A stretch of DNA of 64,000 nucleotides from an uncultured Campylobacterales bacterium (GTDB taxonomy: Bacteria > Campylobacterota > Campylobacteria > Campylobacterales > Arcobacteraceae), in NCBI GenBank assembly GCA_947494995.1, contig CANLWY010000001.1, positions 124,001 to 188,000 of the forward strand. Direction: 5' to 3'. The notes under the pieces were generated by a model. The model did no database searches and was not told the origin of the DNA. It saw nothing but the letters and a program-made list of their open reading frames with translations. A program made the position numbers and the translations under genes. This document shows positions 19,036 through 50,762 of this stretch, piece after piece. How positions within the stretch are numbered: position 1 is the stretch's first letter; the number at the start of each line of letters is the position of its first letter.

Positions 19036-19776
19036 TTAAGCCTCCCCTGCTAATATCTCTGTAATATGCATAATTTTTATAGGATCATTATTTCTATTTA
19101 TAATTCCTTCCATATGCATTAGACATGACATATCTGCACCTGTCATAACTTCTGCTTGGGAATCTAAATGGTCTTTAATTCTATCTTTTCCCATTGCAAC
19201 TGAAATATCAGGTTCTGTTACTGAGAAAGTTCCTCCAAAACCACAACATTCATCATCTCTATTTAGTTCAACAATTTCAATACCTTCAACTAAATTTAGA
19301 AGATTTTTTAATTTATTGTTTTGAGGGATATTAAGTTCACTAGCACTTCCTAATCCTAACGCTCTATGTCCATGACATGAGTTATGAACTCCCACTTTAT
19401 GAGGGAATTTTGCATCAAATTTTTCTACTTTTATAATATCATGTAAAAATTCACAAATTTCATAAATAGATGCTTTTACTTTATTATAATCTTTATTATC
19501 ATCAAAAAATGGTTCGTAATGTTCTTTTACCATTGTTACACATGAACCAGTTGGTGCAACAATATAGTCATACTTTTTAAAGGTATCAACAAATTGATAA
19601 GCTAATGTTTTCATATCTTTTGAACATCCTGAGTTAGCCATTGGTTGACCACAACAAGTTTGTTCTAAAGGGTATTCAACATCTAAACCTTGATTCTTCA
19701 AAATTTTTAGTGTTGCCATACAGCTATTTGGATATAGCTCATTCATAAAACAGGGTATAAATAATCCAACTTTCAT
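19036..19776 (-). CDS. lutA: Lactate utilization protein LutA (CCG-domain)
   Basis: 246 residues with two cysteine-rich CCG modules (TCCGQPMANSGCSKD and ECCGFGGTFSVTEPD) and the conserved GVHNSCHGHRALGLGSAS. These modules bind Fe-S clusters in heterodisulfide-reductase and GlpC/LutA families. I start it at 19776 rather than the longer frame at 19827: AAAAGGAGTT stands in front and MKVGLFIPCFMNELYP is the family N-terminus. First gene of the lut operon, divergent from the AraC-type gene. Confidence 0.95.
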   Translation of the reverse strand: MKVGLFIPCFMNELYPNSCMATLKILKNQGLDVEYPLEQTCCGQPMANSGCSKDMKTLAYQFVDTFKKYDYIVAPTGSCVTMVKEHYEPFFDDNKDYNKVKASIYEICEFLHDIIKVEKFDAKFPHKVGVHNSCHGHRALGLGSASELNIPQNNKLKNLLNLVEGIEIVELNRDDECCGFGGTFSVTEPDISVAMGKDRIKDHLDSQAEVMTGADMSCLMHMEGIINRNNDPIKIMHITEILAGEA

Positions 19777-43063: not shown

Positions 43064-43874
43064 TATCTTTATTATTGTTTGTATCTGAATTGTTTACAAA
43101 ATGTCTTAAGTCTCTATACTCATCACGAGTAAGATATCTTGATTTCCCTGTTGGAAGATTATTTAGTGATATTCCTCCAAATTCAAATCTTTTTAAATCC
43201 ATCACATCTAATCCAAAGTGCGCAAAGAATCTTCTAAGTTCTCTATTCTTACCTTCTGTAATACCAACTTTTAATTTTGAAAAATTTTCATTGTTTGTTA
43301 AAATTTGATAAGCAACAAAAGGTTCAAAAGTCATTGATTTTATTTTTGACTTTTCATGTGCACCATTAGACGCATCTTCTAATTCTAAACCATGAAGCAT
43401 AGCCTCTTCTACTTTAGGAGAAATTTTACCATTCACTTTGATTTTATATACTCTCTCTAAGTTAGAGTGCATTAGTTTATTAGCTACCTCTACTGAATCA
43501 GTTAATAGGATTAGTCCTTCACTAGCATAATCTAATCTACCAATTGGTAAAAAGTGCTTATACTTTTTATCTAAAGTATCAAATATAACTTTTCTGCCTT
43601 GAGGGTCATTTTTAGTAACTAATTCCCCTTTAGGTTTATTATATACGATTACTGTATACATTCTATTTTTATCTTCTTTAATAATTCTCTTTCCAATTTT
43701 AACTATATCATCAGCACTTACTTTTGAAGCTAAATTTGTTACAGGTTTTCCATTTATTGTAACTCTTCCCTCTTCAATTATTTTGTCTGCTTCTCTTCTT
43801 GAATAGTTACTATTATGAGAGATAAACTTATTTAACCTAGTAAGCTCTTTTTCTTCTGGATTATCTTTTGACAT
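43056..43874 (-). CDS. rluB: 23S rRNA pseudouridine synthase, RluB type
   Basis: 272 residues. An S4 RNA-binding domain (~10-65, RLNKFISHNSNYSRREADKI) precedes the catalytic RsuA/RluB domain with the aspartate motif PIGRLDYASEGLILLTD and the GKNRELRRFFAHFGL segment. Closest by layout to RluB (23S position 2605 in E. coli numbering); RsuA/RluE/F types cannot be excluded. Its ATG overlaps the kdsD stop by one base. Confidence 0.92.
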   Translation of the reverse strand: MSKDNPEEKELTRLNKFISHNSNYSRREADKIIEEGRVTINGKPVTNLASKVSADDIVKIGKRIIKEDKNRMYTVIVYNKPKGELVTKNDPQGRKVIFDTLDKKYKHFLPIGRLDYASEGLILLTDSVEVANKLMHSNLERVYKIKVNGKISPKVEEAMLHGLELEDASNGAHEKSKIKSMTFEPFVAYQILTNNENFSKLKVGITEGKNRELRRFFAHFGLDVMDLKRFEFGGISLNNLPTGKSRYLTRDEYRDLRHFVNNSDTNNNKDND

Positions 43875-44839
43875 TATTTTATTCCTGCTTCAATTAAGTC
43901 ATGAATGTGTAGAACACCTACAACCTTTTCTTCTTTATTTGTAATTATAAGTAGTTGGATTTTAAAATCTTCAATGATTTTTAAAGCATCACTAGCAAGA
44001 AGATTTTGATCATTAATTGTTCTAGGATTTTTAGTAGCTACTTCTTCTACTTTACAATCTATACTAAACTCTGGTTTCATTAGAGCTCTTCTTAAGTCAC
44101 CATCACTTAATACTGATGTTAACCTACCCTCTTCATCTGTAATTAGTACGTTGCCTAATCTACCTTCACTCATTATAACAATTGCATCTTTTAATTTTGT
44201 TTCACGTGAAACAATAGGAAGGTTTTCTTTTCGTAATAGGTCATCAACTTTAATAAAAAGTTTTTTTCCTAAACTACCACCTGGATGAAATGATGCAAAA
44301 TCTTCTTTCTGAAAGTTTCTCTTTTTCATAAGACATACTGCAAGAACATCACCCATTGCCATAGTAAGTGTTGTTGATGAAGTTGGAGCTGTATCTAAAG
44401 GACATGCTTCTTTACTCACTGAAATATTAATAAAGAAGTCAGAGTATTTACCTAAGGTAGAATTTTCATTTTTTGCCATTGCAATTAATGGAATATCAAA
44501 TCTTTTCAGATGAGGAAGAAGTTGGATTAATTCTTCACTCTCTCCACTATATGAAATAGCAAGTACTATATCATCTTTACCTATCATACCTAAATCACCA
44601 TGCATTGCTTCAGTAGGATGTAGAAAAAATGATGAAGTTCCTGTACTAGCTAATGTTGCAGCTATTTTAGCTCCAACTAAACCTGACTTACCAACTCCAG
44701 TAACTATAAGTTTTCCTTTAGAGTTGATAATTAAGTCTATAGCTTTTTCTAAATCAAAAGATGAAATATTCTCAGATGCAATCTTTAATTCATTTGCTTC
44801 TGTATCTAAAACATCTTTTGCTATTTTATTAAAGTCCAT
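43874..44839 (-). CDS. kdsD: Arabinose-5-phosphate isomerase (KdsD/KpsF)
   Basis: 321 residues: SIS domain (~35-165; VTGVGKSGLVGAKIAATLAS, MHGDLGMI, SYSGESEEL) and two CBS domains (~205-321). It interconverts ribulose- and arabinose-5-phosphate for KDO and lipopolysaccharide. Inside its coding sequence (44198-44213) lies a perfect 16-base ParB-type parS palindrome, encoding the VSRET residues at the first CBS domain. Confidence 0.95.
   Translation of the reverse strand: MDFNKIAKDVLDTEANELKIASENISSFDLEKAIDLIINSKGKLIVTGVGKSGLVGAKIAATLASTGTSSFFLHPTEAMHGDLGMIGKDDIVLAISYSGESEELIQLLPHLKRFDIPLIAMAKNENSTLGKYSDFFINISVSKEACPLDTAPTSSTTLTMAMGDVLAVCLMKKRNFQKEDFASFHPGGSLGKKLFIKVDDLLRKENLPIVSRETKLKDAIVIMSEGRLGNVLITDEEGRLTSVLSDGDLRRALMKPEFSIDCKVEEVATKNPRTINDQNLLASDALKIIEDFKIQLLIITNKEEKVVGVLHIHDLIEAGIK
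44198..44213. promoter_or_regulatory. parS site (perfect) inside kdsD
   Basis: TGTTTCACGTGAAACA is exactly the consensus parS palindrome bound by chromosomal ParB proteins in many bacteria; the palindrome extends one more base on each side. A second copy with one mismatch is 5.5 kb away at the rlmN start. parS sites cluster near the replication origin. Confidence 0.85.
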
Positions 44840-44854
44840 CGTTTTTATAATTCC

Positions 44855-46822
44855 TTACTGTACAAAAAGTGTAGGTACAATCATTGGATATTTTTTGTAT
44901 TTTCTAACACAATGTTTTCTTACAACTTTTCTAATTTCATCTTCTAAAACTCTATTGTTTTTGAAAATACCCTCTTTTGCATTTTCTAAGAATGTAACTA
45001 ATAAGTCTTCAATCTCTTTAGAAAATTGTTTATCTTGTTTATCAGGAACTAATCCAAAGGCTGATACTCTTGGTCTTTGTTCCATTTTTCTATCATCAGC
45101 ATTTACTTGAGCAACAATCATAACAACACCTTCATTTGCCATAGTTTGTCTATCCATAACAATATCATTTGCAATTTTGTTGTTTAACTGATTGTCAATA
45201 TATACTTTACCTGTTTTTACTGTTTTTACTTTTTTAAGATATTTTGGAGTAACTTCAACAGTTTCACCATCACTCATTATGTATGTATTCCTTTCTAGAA
45301 CACCACAGTCAATACCTGTTTTTGCATGTTTTACTGCATGGTTGTATTCACCATGAATTGGCATGAAAAATTTAGGTTTTACTAATCTAATCATCAGTTT
45401 TTGTTCTTCTTGTGCAGCATGTCCTGAAACATGAATTTCACTAAAGTCTTGATATGCCACTTGTGCACCAGCTTTAAGTAGATGGTTAATAATAGCAGAT
45501 ACTGAAGCTTCATTTCCTGGAATTGCTTTTGCAGAAAGTATAATTTGGTCACCTGGCTTGATTTTGATATGTCTATGTTCATGAATTGACATTCTATATA
45601 ATGCAGACATTGATTCTCCTTGAGAACCTGTAGTTACAATTAATACTTCACTATCTTTATATTTATTTACTTCATGTGCATCAATAAATTGATCTCTAGG
45701 GAATTTAATATAACCTAAGCTCATTGCAAGATCTAAGTTTTTTTCCATAGATCTACCAATTACACAAACTTTTCTTCCATACCTTAAACCATATTCAATT
45801 GCTTGTGCAACTCTATGAATATTTGAAGAAAAAGTAGACATAATAACTCTACCTTTTGAAGTTGAGAAAAGTCTATCAAAAGTTGGACCAACAGTTTTTT
45901 CAGATTTTGTAAATCCTGGAGAATGTGAGTTTGTTGAATCTGACATTAATAGTAGAACACCCTCTTCCCCATAATGAGCAAATCTATGTAAATCAGTTGG
46001 AAAACCATCTATAGGAGTATGATCAATTTTAAAATCTCCTGTATGGATAATTGTTCCTGCTTCTGTTTTTATAGCTAATGAAGAAGAATCAATAATTGAG
46101 TGTGTAATGTGGATCCATTCAACTTCAAAATCTCCAATTTTAATAGGAACTCTTTTTTCAATTGGTCTAAATAGTTTTCTATGCTCTCTCATTTTATGTT
46201 CATCAAATTTTGAACCAATCATCTCTAATGGTAATGATGTTCCATAAATAGGAAATTGTAGCTCTTTAAATAGATATGGCATTGCCCCAATATGGTCTTC
46301 ATGACCATGCGTAATTACAACAGCCTCAATTTTGTCTTTGATTTGTCTAATATATGTAAAATCTGGTATTAAGATATCTACTCCATGCATATCTTCATCT
46401 GGGAAACTCATTCCAACATCAACAACAATTGCAGACTTTTCAGTCTCAATTACCATCATGTTTCCACCAATTTCACCTAAACCACCTAAAGGAGTGATTC
46501 TAACTTTTGCATTTGTAGAAAGATTAAGTTTATTATGAGGATTTAATCTCTCTTTATGAACTCTTTCATTTACACTATGAGCTTTTTTTAATTCACTAAT
46601 CCATGCAGAATTAGTTTTACTTGCATGTGTCTTCGCCCTATTCCCATTGTTATTAGGTTTTCTTCTTCTATTATTGTTTTGTTTTTTGTCACTATTTTCT
46701 TTGTTGTTTTGAGAAGGTTTGTTATTTTGTGTAGTTTTCTTATTTCCGCTAGACTGTTTTTTTGCCTCTTTTTGAGGTGCGTTTGCTATATCATTTTGAT
46801 TATTAGCTTTGTTGTTTTCCAT
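44855..46822 (-). CDS. rnj: Ribonuclease J with disordered N-terminal extension
   Basis: 655 residues. The first ~95 are Asn/Lys/Gln-rich low complexity (with NNRRRKPNNNG), then the metallo-beta-lactamase/beta-CASP core: metal motif ITHGHEDHIGAMPYLF, LIHTGDFKID-like IIHTGDFKIDHTPIDG, SDSTNSHSPGFTKSEK, and the C-terminal HVSGHAAQEEQK and PIHGEYNH motifs. RNase J is the main 5'-3' exo- and endoribonuclease of RNA decay in this lineage. The Helicobacter orthologue has a similar extension and binds a DEAD-box helicase. It overlaps rsmA by 20 bases. Confidence 0.96.
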   Translation of the reverse strand: MENNKANNQNDIANAPQKEAKKQSSGNKKTTQNNKPSQNNKENSDKKQNNNRRRKPNNNGNRAKTHASKTNSAWISELKKAHSVNERVHKERLNPHNKLNLSTNAKVRITPLGGLGEIGGNMMVIETEKSAIVVDVGMSFPDEDMHGVDILIPDFTYIRQIKDKIEAVVITHGHEDHIGAMPYLFKELQFPIYGTSLPLEMIGSKFDEHKMREHRKLFRPIEKRVPIKIGDFEVEWIHITHSIIDSSSLAIKTEAGTIIHTGDFKIDHTPIDGFPTDLHRFAHYGEEGVLLLMSDSTNSHSPGFTKSEKTVGPTFDRLFSTSKGRVIMSTFSSNIHRVAQAIEYGLRYGRKVCVIGRSMEKNLDLAMSLGYIKFPRDQFIDAHEVNKYKDSEVLIVTTGSQGESMSALYRMSIHEHRHIKIKPGDQIILSAKAIPGNEASVSAIINHLLKAGAQVAYQDFSEIHVSGHAAQEEQKLMIRLVKPKFFMPIHGEYNHAVKHAKTGIDCGVLERNTYIMSDGETVEVTPKYLKKVKTVKTGKVYIDNQLNNKIANDIVMDRQTMANEGVVMIVAQVNADDRKMEQRPRVSAFGLVPDKQDKQFSKEIEDLLVTFLENAKEGIFKNNRVLEDEIRKVVRKHCVRKYKKYPMIVPTLFVQ

Positions 46823-47603
46823 TCTTTACCTTTGTATACATTTGGCTATACAAAGATGCGCTTACTTCATGAGGACGTAGAGTCTCATTTAAATTAAGTT
46901 CATTATAGATATTAGATAAAAACTCTTTATCCACAATAGATGATAGATTTTTAGAAAGTTTTTTTCTTGGCTGAGAAAAGCAAACTTTCAAAAATTTGTT
47001 AAAATCTTTATCTAATACCTTGTTCATATCTTTTGACAGATATAATATTGAAGACATAACTTTTGGTGGAGGATCAAAAGATTCAGGTGGTACATCAAAT
47101 AGTATCCTTGATTCTTTTGAAATTAATTCTGCAATAACACCCAATGAAGAGTACTCTTTATCCCCTACTTTCGCAGAAAATTTTTGAGCTACTTCTTTTT
47201 GGATCATTACAATAATGTTCTCACAATTAATATCTTCAAATGCTCTTAATATAATGTTTGTTGCAATATAGTAAGGTAGATTGGCAATTAAATCATATTT
47301 GCCATCATTTAAGCTACCTTTTTTATCCCAAGCTTCTAAAACATCAGTGTGGATCAGTTCAAATCGCTTGTTTTCTATCTCTTTTGCAAACTTTGACTCT
47401 AGAATACTGATTAAATCAGTATCGACTTCATATGCAGTCGTATCTTTGTATTTGACTAAATTTTGTGTCAAATCACCTAAGCCAGGCCCAATTTCAATAA
47501 TATGGTTGTTATTATTGGGCATCGATTGGATGATCCTGTTTAAGACAGAAGAGTCTTTTAAAAAATTTTGTCCGAATTTCTTTTTTGCTATTACTTTTTT
47601 CAT
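46803..47603 (-). CDS. rsmA: 16S rRNA dimethyladenosine transferase
   Basis: 266 residues. It dimethylates two adenosines near the 3' end of 16S rRNA. The start at 47603 gives the family N-terminus MKKVIAKKKFGQNFLKDSSV; the longer frame to 47693 adds 30 residues that overlap the divergent hisF start. Motifs: IIEIGPGLGDLTQNL, VIANLPYYI-type DLIANLPYYIATNI, and VPPESFDPPPKVMSS. The ribosome site is weak. First gene of the long minus-strand cluster. Confidence 0.95.
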   Translation of the reverse strand: MKKVIAKKKFGQNFLKDSSVLNRIIQSMPNNNNHIIEIGPGLGDLTQNLVKYKDTTAYEVDTDLISILESKFAKEIENKRFELIHTDVLEAWDKKGSLNDGKYDLIANLPYYIATNIILRAFEDINCENIIVMIQKEVAQKFSAKVGDKEYSSLGVIAELISKESRILFDVPPESFDPPPKVMSSILYLSKDMNKVLDKDFNKFLKVCFSQPRKKLSKNLSSIVDKEFLSNIYNELNLNETLRPHEVSASLYSQMYTKVKNGKQQS

Positions 47604-47677: not shown

Positions 47678-48439
47678 TTGAGTTATTTTGCAAAAAGAAT
47701 TATTCCTTGCCTTGATGTAAAAGATGGCAGAGTTGTTAAAGGAGTTAATTTCGTTGGACTTCGAGATGCAGGAGATCCTGTAGAAGTTGCGAAAAGATAC
47801 AATAATGAAGGTGCAGATGAAATTACATTTCTTGATATTACAGCAAGTCATGAGAATAGGGATACTATAGTTGATATTGTAAAAGATGTTGCTAAAGAGG
47901 TCTTTATACCACTTACTGTTGGTGGAGGTATTAGAAAGCTTGAAGATATCTATAAATTGCTTAATGTAGGATGTGATAAAGTATCAGTAAACTCTTCAGC
48001 AGTTGTTAATCCAGACTTTATTGACGAAGGTGCAAAAAGATTTGGAAGTCAATGCATTGTTGTAGCCATTGATGTTAAAAAAGTTGAAGATGGTTCTTAT
48101 CATGTTTTTGTAAAAGGTGGTAGAGAAGATACAGGTCTAGATGCAATACAATGGGCAAAAGAAGTATATAATAGAGGAGCAGGGGAGATACTTTTAACTT
48201 CTATGGATACAGATGGTGCTAAAAGTGGGTTTGAGTTAAATATTACAGAAAAAATTTCTTCAATTGTTGATATTCCTGTGATAGCAAGTGGTGGAGCAGG
48301 GACTATGGAGCATATGAAAGAGGCTTTTGAACATGGAGCAAGCGCTGCTCTAGCTGCATCTATTTTCCATTTTAAAGAGATTGATATAATGGAATTAAAA
48401 CATTATCTTAAAGAGAATAATATTCCTGTAAGGATTTAA
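47678..48439 (+). CDS. hisF: Imidazole glycerol phosphate synthase cyclase subunit
   Basis: 253-residue (beta/alpha)8 barrel. With HisH it closes the imidazole ring in histidine synthesis and releases [25 protein letters not shown] holds the first catalytic Asp; [32 protein letters not shown] (second Asp) and [14 protein letters not shown] follow. The start is TTG at 47678, after AAAGGATAGG. No other his genes lie within the window, so the pathway is dispersed. Confidence 0.97.
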
Positions 48440-48440
48440 T

Positions 48441-49109
48441 ATGAGATTTTTAAAACTTCTTTTAGTGCCAGTTTTTGCTTTTTCATTTGAAATTGAATTC
48501 AATAAAAAGTTTTATCATGAACTTCCTCATGATACTTTGAGTGCATATATAACTGTTACAATTACTGATGATAATGAAATTATTGTTGGTGAACGTTTAG
48601 AGGTTTTTAATCAAAAAATAAAAAGTTTAGATAAAGTAGAAAGAAAACTTGGAACTTTTAATATAAGACCTAAGTATAGGCATTCAACAAGTACTCCAAG
48701 AGTTTCTGGTTATATTGGAGAATTAAGATATAAAGTAAATTCTCGTAAAGCAAGATTTATGGATGAATTCATTTCTGAGATTACAAAACTTAAAAGAAAT
48801 AGAGATACTAATGTTTCTGTTTCAAGTCTTTCTTGGAGTGTAAAAGAAGATACTTATAATGTTACTTTAGACTTATTAAGATTAGAAGCAATTAATTGGG
48901 TAAGTCAATATTCAAAGAATTTGTCAAAAGATTTAAATAAAGAGTGTTCAGTTAAAAAAATTGACATAAATAAAACTATGCCAATGATGCCATTGAATAA
49001 TAGGGCAGTTTATTCAAGTATTGAAACTTCAACAAAATCAATACCGGTTCCTGAATCAAATCAAGAGAAAATAGTTATAAATCCACATTATGTAATGGAG
49101 TGTAAATGA
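48441..49109 (+). CDS. Exported SIMPL-domain (DUF541) protein
   Basis: 222 residues with a short hydrophobic N-terminus (MRFLKLLLVPVFAFSF) and then a SIMPL-like domain: YITVTITDDNEIIVGERLEV, TPRVSGYIGELRYKVNSRKA, and VSSLSWSVKEDTYNVTLDLLRLEAI. SIMPL proteins form periplasmic or outer-membrane rings and are tied to stress defence, but the role is unclear. It starts 1 base after the hisF stop and overlaps the next gene by 4 bases. Confidence 0.75.
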   Translation: MRFLKLLLVPVFAFSFEIEFNKKFYHELPHDTLSAYITVTITDDNEIIVGERLEVFNQKIKSLDKVERKLGTFNIRPKYRHSTSTPRVSGYIGELRYKVNSRKARFMDEFISEITKLKRNRDTNVSVSSLSWSVKEDTYNVTLDLLRLEAINWVSQYSKNLSKDLNKECSVKKIDINKTMPMMPLNNRAVYSSIETSTKSIPVPESNQEKIVINPHYVMECK

Positions 49110-49642
49110 TAGTTTGTGCAGGAAGAAATGAAACATTTAAATTTGCAGAACCAGTAGGCGTAGGATTAGTTGAGTCTGCAATTAATTTAACAAGACATTG
49201 TCTTTTCAATAAACCTGATTTTATACTTTTTATTGGTAGTGCAGGGTCTTATGGTGAACATAAGATATTTGATATAATTGAATCAAAAAGAGCTTCAAAT
49301 CTTGAACTATCATTCTTAAGTAAAGATTCTTATACTCCTTTAGATAATGTATTAGAGTCAGAAAATAAAATGGTGAGAAATGATACTATAGTAAATAGTT
49401 CAAATTATATAAGTACAAACTTTGAGTTATCAAAAGAGTATAGTCAATATGGTATTGGCATTGAAAATATGGAGTTTTTCTCTATACTACAAGTTGCACG
49501 TGAGTTTGAAATACCTGTAGCAGGAATCTTTATTGTTACAAATTATACAAATGAAAATGCACACGAAGACTTTATGAAAAATCATAAAGAGGCTATGTCA
49601 AAGCTAACTCAATATTTAGTTGAAAAACAAATAATCAAATAA
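49106..49642 (+). CDS. Purine-nucleoside phosphorylase-superfamily protein
   Basis: 178 residues. The fold of nucleoside phosphorylase/MTA-SAH nucleosidase enzymes is suggested by DFILFIGSAGSYGEHKIFDI near residue 38, the base-binding YGIGIENMEFFSILQVAREF (the E-N-M-E triad of the superfamily) and PVAGIFIVTNYTNENAHEDF. It is shorter than typical members (~230-240), so the N-terminal substrate-binding part is abbreviated; substrate unknown. Confidence 0.8.
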   Translation: MIVCAGRNETFKFAEPVGVGLVESAINLTRHCLFNKPDFILFIGSAGSYGEHKIFDIIESKRASNLELSFLSKDSYTPLDNVLESENKMVRNDTIVNSSNYISTNFELSKEYSQYGIGIENMEFFSILQVAREFEIPVAGIFIVTNYTNENAHEDFMKNHKEAMSKLTQYLVEKQIIK

Positions 49643-49683: not shown

Positions 49684-49699
49684 GGTTTCACGTGAAACA
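49684..49699. promoter_or_regulatory. parS site overlapping the rlmN start codon
   Basis: GGTTTCACGTGAAACA matches the parS consensus at 15 of 16 positions, and the inner 14 bases are a perfect palindrome. The GTG initiation codon of rlmN (49692-49694) is its centre, and the ribosome site AAGGA lies just 5' of it. Confidence 0.8.
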
Positions 49700-50762
49700 A
49701 TCAATATATGATTACACCTTAGATGAATTAAAGTCTCAGTTAAAACCTAGCTTTAGAGCAAAGCAGGTATATAATTGGATTTATAAAAAATATGTAACAT
49801 CTTATGATGATATGAAAAATATTCCAAATGATTTAAAAGAGAATCTAAAAGAAAATTATGAAATAAATGTTCTGGAGATAGTAAAAAAAGAAAAGAGTCT
49901 AGATGGAAGTATAAAGTATCTTTTTAAACTTCATGATGGTCATACAGTAGAAGCTGTGTTGCTTTTAATGAAGAAAAAAAAGGTAAATGAAGATGGAACA
50001 ATTGAAAGAAGTGAGAAGTTTACTGTTTGTATTTCTACACAAGTAGGTTGTAAAGTAGGTTGTACTTTTTGTCTAACTGCAAAGGGTGGTTTTGTTAGAA
50101 ATCTAAGTGTAGGTGAAATAGTAAATCAAATTGTTCAGATAAAAAGAGATAATGATATCCCTGAGAATAAATCATTAAATATTGTATATATGGGGATGGG
50201 TGAACCTCTTGATAATTTTAAAAACTTTATTCATTCTGTAAAGGTATTCTCTGAACCAGAAGGTTTATCAATAAATAGAAGAAGAATTACAGTCTCTACT
50301 TCAGGAATATCTTCAAAAATTGAAAAACTTGGAAATGAAGATTTAGGAATTCAATTAGCAATATCACTTCATGCTGTTGATGATGGTTTAAGAAGTGAGT
50401 TGATTCCAATGAATAAAGCTTACAATATAAAATCAATTATTGATGCAGTTAGAAAGTTTCCTGTTGATGCAAGAAAGAAAGTGATGTTTGAATATCTTGT
50501 AATAAAAGATAAAAATGATGATATTGCTTCTGCCCAAAAATTGTTGAAACTTTTAGATGGAATAAAAGCAAAGGTAAACCTAATTTATTTTAATCCTTAT
50601 CCTGGAACAACATATCAAAGACCACAAAGCAGTGATATGATAAAATTCCAAGAATATTTAGTAAATAAAGGTCTTCTTTGTACGATTAGAGAATCAAAAG
50701 GTCTTGATATCTCTGCTGCATGTGGACAATTAAAAGAGAAGGAAGCTAATGGAAGCTCTTGA
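49692..50762 (+). CDS. rlmN: Dual-specificity RNA methyltransferase RlmN
   Basis: 356-residue radical-SAM enzyme that makes 2-methyladenosine in 23S rRNA (A2503) and some tRNAs. CxxxCxxC cluster motif in VGCKVGCTFCLTAKGGFVRN, YMGMGEPLDNFKN, VSTSGISSKIEKLGNE, SLHAVDD and the catalytic C-terminal cysteine in DISAACGQL. The start is GTG at 49692 with AAAGGATGG upstream, and this codon is within a parS palindrome. Confidence 0.97.
   Translation: MKQSIYDYTLDELKSQLKPSFRAKQVYNWIYKKYVTSYDDMKNIPNDLKENLKENYEINVLEIVKKEKSLDGSIKYLFKLHDGHTVEAVLLLMKKKKVNEDGTIERSEKFTVCISTQVGCKVGCTFCLTAKGGFVRNLSVGEIVNQIVQIKRDNDIPENKSLNIVYMGMGEPLDNFKNFIHSVKVFSEPEGLSINRRRITVSTSGISSKIEKLGNEDLGIQLAISLHAVDDGLRSELIPMNKAYNIKSIIDAVRKFPVDARKKVMFEYLVIKDKNDDIASAQKLLKLLDGIKAKVNLIYFNPYPGTTYQRPQSSDMIKFQEYLVNKGLLCTIRESKGLDISAACGQLKEKEANGSS

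What the first reader, a model, noticed from the sequence alone, without database searches (positions are those of the whole stretch)
44198..44213. Perfect parS palindrome inside kdsD
TGTTTCACGTGAAACA is the ParB target conserved across bacteria. Coding for VSRET at this point, it is a protein-coding parS. It predicts that this part of the chromosome lies close to oriC and nucleates ParB and SMC loading.
Basis: partly seen in the sequence, partly recalled or inferred. Interest (0 to 1): 0.65.

Follow-up and report, generated by a model that had tools for sequence, protein, structure and literature searches.

The report
Chromosomal centromere (parS) inside kdsD

Summary
In detail: TGTTTCACGTGAAACA lies at 44198-44213, reading V-S-R-E-T on the minus strand in kdsD. 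A second copy (14-bp core perfect) lies at 49684-49699 and contains the probable GTG start of rlmN. These are the only perfect cores in the 3.17-Mb genome. dnaA and the cumulative GC-skew minimum coincide 106 kb away. The genome has one parA-parB pair, remote from the sites. In 82 of 104 Arcobacteraceae genomes the kdsD codons GTT-TCA-CGT-GAA-AC are letter-identical, although CGT is only 3% of Arg codons elsewhere in kdsD. Most genera without the perfect site keep a degenerate palindrome by changing the protein. In other Campylobacterales families the parS pair mostly sits in the same gene block (kdsD-rnj-ksgA-hisF-mtn-rlmN), but inside mtn and an RluA-type gene: sites turned over while the block stayed the centromere. 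Best reading: an SMC-independent ParABS centromere. Each site is an ordinary parS; the order-wide anchoring is the newer part. ParB binding is inferred, not shown.

The parts
44198..44213 (.). parS site A, TGTTTCACGTGAAACA, inside kdsD (VSRET, residues 210-214)
49684..49699 (.). parS site B, GGTTTCACGTGAAACA (14-bp core perfect), at the 5' end of rlmN; contains the probable rlmN GTG start codon (49692-49694)
43874..44839 (-). kdsD/kpsF-type gene (SIS + two CBS domains), host gene of site A
44855..46822 (-). rnj (RNase J family), member of the block that carries the centromere across the order
46803..47603 (-). ksgA-like gene of the block (name from general knowledge; coordinates approximate at the 5' end)
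47690..48439 (+). hisF, member of the block
49106..49642 (+). mtn/mqnB-like nucleosidase gene (phosphorylase superfamily PF01048); the gene that carries a parS in most other Campylobacterales families examined
49373..49387 (+). position in mtn aligned with the parS (VSRET) of other families; here GTG AGA AAT GAT ACT (VRNDT), no palindrome: probable former site (inference)
49692..50762 (+). rlmN, whose start overlaps site B

Best explanation
44198-44213 is a working chromosomal parS. Together with the copy 5.5 kb away it forms the two-site centromere of this chromosome. Shown: sequence, genome-wide uniqueness, selection on the DNA letters, proximity to dnaA and the GC-skew minimum, and the presence of one ParA and one ParB. 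Inferred from the ParABS literature: ParB dimers bind each palindrome, load as CTP clamps, slide over the flanking genes (kdsD to rlmN), and the ParB-coated region is pulled along nucleoid-bound ParA so that the origin region segregates first. Because SMC-ScpAB appears to be missing in this lineage, the complex acts through ParA alone (or with an unidentified partner) and not as an SMC loading site. The block kdsD-rnj-ksgA-hisF-mtn-rlmN has stayed the centromere across much of the order, while individual sites were lost and re-created a few kb away, one of them inside kdsD.
For: Only two perfect cores genome-wide, 5.5 kb apart. 82/104 family genomes carry the exact 14-mer, all 16 of the genus exactly two, reversed control none. 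In 82 kdsD genes four consecutive codons (V210-E213) are single-codon; only 3 of the other 150 conserved degenerate columns are, and CGT is 3% of Arg codons there. Where the perfect site is missing, DNA symmetry is mostly kept by changing amino acids (VSRGT, VSCGT, VPHGT, VPYGT). In 31 closed or single-main-contig family genomes the kdsD site position is 38-172 kb from dnaA, at most 5.5% of the chromosome. GC-skew minimum at dnaA. birA-like, parA, parB, atpF-like cluster; the closest solved ParB relative is the H. pylori ParB of entry 4umk (E 4.9e-69), a protein shown to bind parS (PMC11229316); contact residues R173, T179, G201 as in parS-binding ParBs (PMC7383237). The same block holds the parS pair in other families.
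Against: No binding data. parAB lies on another contig; in closed relatives it is about 0.7-0.9 Mb from dnaA. At 106 kb the sites are less origin-hugging than in Caulobacter (about 8 kb, PMC5815017). Some genomes (e.g. G043, three of four g12 genomes) keep no recognisable kdsD site, so site A itself is not indispensable.
Confidence: 0.93

Rival explanations
1. Coincidence: VSRET happens to be spelled as a palindrome.
For: The five residues are conserved and codon usage alone gives this spelling in about 0.3% of random draws per gene, so one genome by itself would not be decisive.
Against: A second identical core 5.5 kb away and none elsewhere; letter-identical in 82 genomes while neighbouring codons vary; kdsD of other families has neither the peptide nor the palindrome.
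Confidence: 0.01
2. The site is a parS that also serves as the entry point for SMC-ScpAB.
For: General rule in B. subtilis and Caulobacter (review PMC7333895).
Against: ScpA 0/104 and 0/397 over the cut-off; SMC 0/104 over the cut-off, weak hits are short partial matches. Limits: only the top six SMC candidates per genome were scored, and MukB/MksB were not searched.
Confidence: 0.03
3. The palindromes are operators of another regulator (or Noc-type occlusion sites) and act on kdsD and rlmN expression.
For: Site B overlaps the rlmN start and could affect its expression.
Against: Noc sites are spread over the genome and differ at bases 1 and 6 (PMC7383237); ParB here has R173/G201, not Q173/R201; in other families the same motif sits inside other genes (mtn, RluA-type), so no regulated gene is shared.
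Confidence: 0.02

Closest known systems
Helicobacter pylori ParABS (HpParA/HpParB with parS TGTTCCACGTGAAACA, PMC11229316; structure 4umk)
   Same: Same class; closest solved ParB (E 4.9e-69); parS differs by one base; ParA-ParB-parS complexes shown in vitro.
   Different: Site here is the perfect palindrome; two sites, in kdsD and at the rlmN start.
Caulobacter crescentus parS cluster (PMC5815017)
   Same: Clustered sites near the origin, inside genes; new parS sites tolerated mainly near the existing cluster, which would explain turnover inside one block.
   Different: Five strongest sites within 5 kb and about 8 kb from ori there; two sites 106-111 kb from ori here; Caulobacter has ScpA (control positive).
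Bacillus subtilis Noc/NBS
   Same: Related HTH protein and 14-bp palindrome.
   Different: Different bases 1 and 6, dispersed sites, different contact residues.

Membership tests
Chromosomal parS (ParABS centromere) | 16-bp palindrome TGTTTCACGTGAAACA or close variant | tested here: met
Chromosomal parS (ParABS centromere) | Located in the origin region | tested here: met
   106 kb from dnaA and GC-skew minimum; within 5.5% of the chromosome from dnaA in 31 relatives
Chromosomal parS (ParABS centromere) | Cognate ParB with HTH domain and parS-type contact residues, plus ParA | tested here: met
Chromosomal parS (ParABS centromere) | DNA letters under selection independent of the protein | tested here: met
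Chromosomal parS (ParABS centromere) | Bound by ParB in vivo and needed for segregation | not testable with these tools
   needs ChIP-seq and mutants
SMC-loading parS | SMC-ScpAB present in the genome | tested here: not met
Noc binding site (NBS) | Different base 1 and base 6 and dispersed distribution | tested here: not met
   two clustered sites with parS bases; residues R173/G201

The most novel reading that the evidence does not exclude
The centromere of the order Campylobacterales has been held in one housekeeping-gene block (kdsD-rnj-ksgA-hisF-mtn-rlmN, plus an RluA-type gene) through its diversification, without SMC-ScpAB, while the actual parS palindromes were repeatedly lost and re-created in different genes of the block, reshaping the encoded peptides (VSRET in mtn or kdsD, HLFHVKH in the RluA-type protein).
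Probability: 0.65. Interest if true: 0.6.

Novelty: new member of a known kind. Interest (0 to 1): 0.45.

Why it matters
It places the centromere of a group that includes Helicobacter, Campylobacter and Arcobacter relatives in a defined gene block. It offers a natural ParABS system without SMC-ScpAB, so ParA-driven segregation can be studied apart from condensin loading. It also gives a clean record of how a centromere moves on the scale of a few kilobases and recodes the enzymes it passes through, which bears on the open question of why parS sites cluster (raised in PMC7333895).

Tried and rejected
Chance origin (rejected by conservation and uniqueness). Noc/NBS identity (rejected by bases and residues). 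SMC loading (no ScpA; no SMC over the cut-off). The 3-mismatch hit at 19534-19549 and the two-mismatch genome hits were treated as background (12 places per genome in all against 6 for the reversed control). Literature searches found no paper on Arcobacter chromosomal parS or on parS being anchored to this block, but the central survey (Livny et al. 2007) is not held, so priority cannot be excluded. ParB residue 200 changes in genera with variant sites, but the genera are few and related, so no causal claim is made.

Full report
What is there. The palindrome TGTTTCACGTGAAACA is at 44198-44213 exactly. On the minus strand it encodes VSRET, residues 210-214 of a KpsF/GutQ-type sugar-phosphate isomerase, the probable kdsD, within its first CBS domain. 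Over the 3.17-Mb genome these are the only two perfect cores, with no single-mismatch copies. At this base composition about 0.007 copies would be expected (own arithmetic).

Where it is. The window is contig C1:124001-188000. dnaA is at C1:62352-63638 and the cumulative GC-skew minimum of the first 400 kb is at C1:62271, directly upstream of dnaA, so the replication origin is very probably there. Site A is about 106 kb and site B about 111 kb away. In 31 closed or single-main-contig genomes of the family the kdsD site position lies 38-172 kb from dnaA, never more than 5.5% of the chromosome (positions; distances). Five single-contig genomes of other families begin with dnaA and have the pair within 1-64 kb of it, taking the contigs as circular.

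The cognate proteins. One ParB family gene is found (C4:251480), preceded by parA and a birA-like gene and followed by ATP synthase genes (birA and atp names from general knowledge). Its closest solved relative is the H. pylori ParB of entry 4umk. It has ParB N-terminal and HTH domains. By counting along the alignment it has R173, T179 and G201 (Caulobacter numbering), the residues of parS-binding ParBs, not the Q, K and R of Noc (PMC7383237). The parAB genes are far from the sites: in closed relatives about 0.7-0.9 Mb from dnaA.

Selection on the DNA. Among 104 Arcobacteraceae genomes, 82 have the exact 14-mer; the reversed control pattern has none; all 16 members of the genus have exactly two, about 5.4-5.6 kb apart. 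In the 82 kdsD genes with the site the codons GTT TCA CGT GAA are invariant, while only 3 of the other 150 conserved degenerate columns are; Arg is CGT in 3% and AGA in 85% elsewhere in the same genes. The third base of the Thr codon, outside the 14-bp core, varies, so the constraint ends where the core ends. Genomes without the perfect site mostly have GTT YCA YRT GRA AC at the same codons: the protein changes to VSRGT, VSCGT, VSHGT, VPHGT or VPYGT, the last spelling the perfect palindrome GTTCCATATGGAAC. Site B drifts in parallel (GTTTCATGTGAAAC, GTTCCACGTGGAAC, GTTCCACATGGAAC). The H. pylori parS used in the structural work, TGTTCCACGTGAAACA (PMC11229316), is one member of this spectrum.

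Turnover within one block. GTTYCAYRTGRAAC occurs in 346 of 397 genomes of the class, most often twice. In 19 genomes drawn from 11 other families the two sites usually lie 0.1-5 kb apart. Reading the DNA around them, nearly all lie in the same neighbourhood kdsD-rnj-ksgA-hisF-mtn-rlmN; exceptions include L217, whose sites are in other genes. But the sites are elsewhere in the block: one inside mtn, at an equivalent codon and spelling V-S-x-E-T in most, and one inside an RluA-type pseudouridine synthase near rlmN, spelling HLFHVKH or similar. The 80 named loci fetched separately show the same: sites in kdsD in Arcobacteraceae, in mtn in Sulfurospirillum and others; where both the mtn and rlmN genes are present in a non-Arcobacteraceae locus, a site in mtn is nearly always found. 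In this window the mtn position reads VRNDT with no palindrome, and kdsD of other families has neither VSRET nor the palindrome. One uncultured relative (L289) has the site in both mtn and kdsD. The simplest reading, not proven by a tree here, is that a kdsD site arose next to the old cluster and the mtn site then decayed. This fits the Caulobacter finding that new parS sites are tolerated mainly near the existing cluster (PMC5815017).

No SMC-ScpAB. ScpA is found in 0 of 104 family genomes and over the cut-off in 0 of 397 class genomes, while 9 of 14 control genomes are positive. SMC is over the cut-off in 0 of 104, with 10 of 14 controls over it; remaining hits are short partial matches to coiled coils or ATPase ends. 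The SMC search scored only the six best candidates per genome, but a true SMC would be expected among them. So parS is kept under strong selection where its SMC-loading role does not seem available. MukB and MksB were not searched.

Mechanism. Most likely ParB nucleates on the two palindromes, spreads as a CTP clamp over the block, and ParA moves it. Binding, spreading and segregation are inferred from the family, not shown here.

Verdict. The SMC part is not supported. A coding parS near oriC is ordinary; the anchoring of the pair in one block across an order and the recoding of three different genes are the more interesting result, and I could not exclude that it is already described in papers not held here.

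Noticed in passing
window 49684-49699 / 49692: The probable GTG start codon of rlmN lies inside the second parS; the same arrangement is seen in the relative L092, while in other relatives the site is tens to hundreds of bases further upstream.
   Followed up: partly
L182, L218-L220, L222, L226-L229, L231-L233: In other Campylobacterales families the second parS lies inside an RluA-type pseudouridine synthase and spells HLFHVKH, apparently at the family's conserved VHLxHxGHPI-like stretch (motif comparison from memory); the centromere seems to have shaped an enzyme motif.
   Followed up: partly
L194-L201, L208-L210 versus L154 (ParB loci): ParB residue 200 (just before G201) is Ala in genera with the canonical site but Gln, His, Leu, Phe, Val or Ile in most genera whose sites are GTTCCAYATGGAAC-like; possible co-drift of ParB and parS. 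Exceptions exist (L211 has Leu with a canonical site).
   Followed up: partly
L289:3095 and L289:7628: An uncultured Campylobacterales MAG carries the same variant parS in both mtn and kdsD, a possible intermediate between the two arrangements.
   Followed up: partly
G004, G011, G023, G026, G030, G035, G036 (about 6.8 kb from the kdsD site): Several relatives have an extra GTTTCATGTGAAAC about 6.8 kb from the kdsD site on the side away from rlmN, a possible third centromere site in another gene.
   Followed up: no
G000:C4:250601-252256 (L154:8602-10257): parA-parB sits between a birA-like gene and ATP synthase genes; in closed relatives parB is far from oriC and parS.
   Followed up: partly
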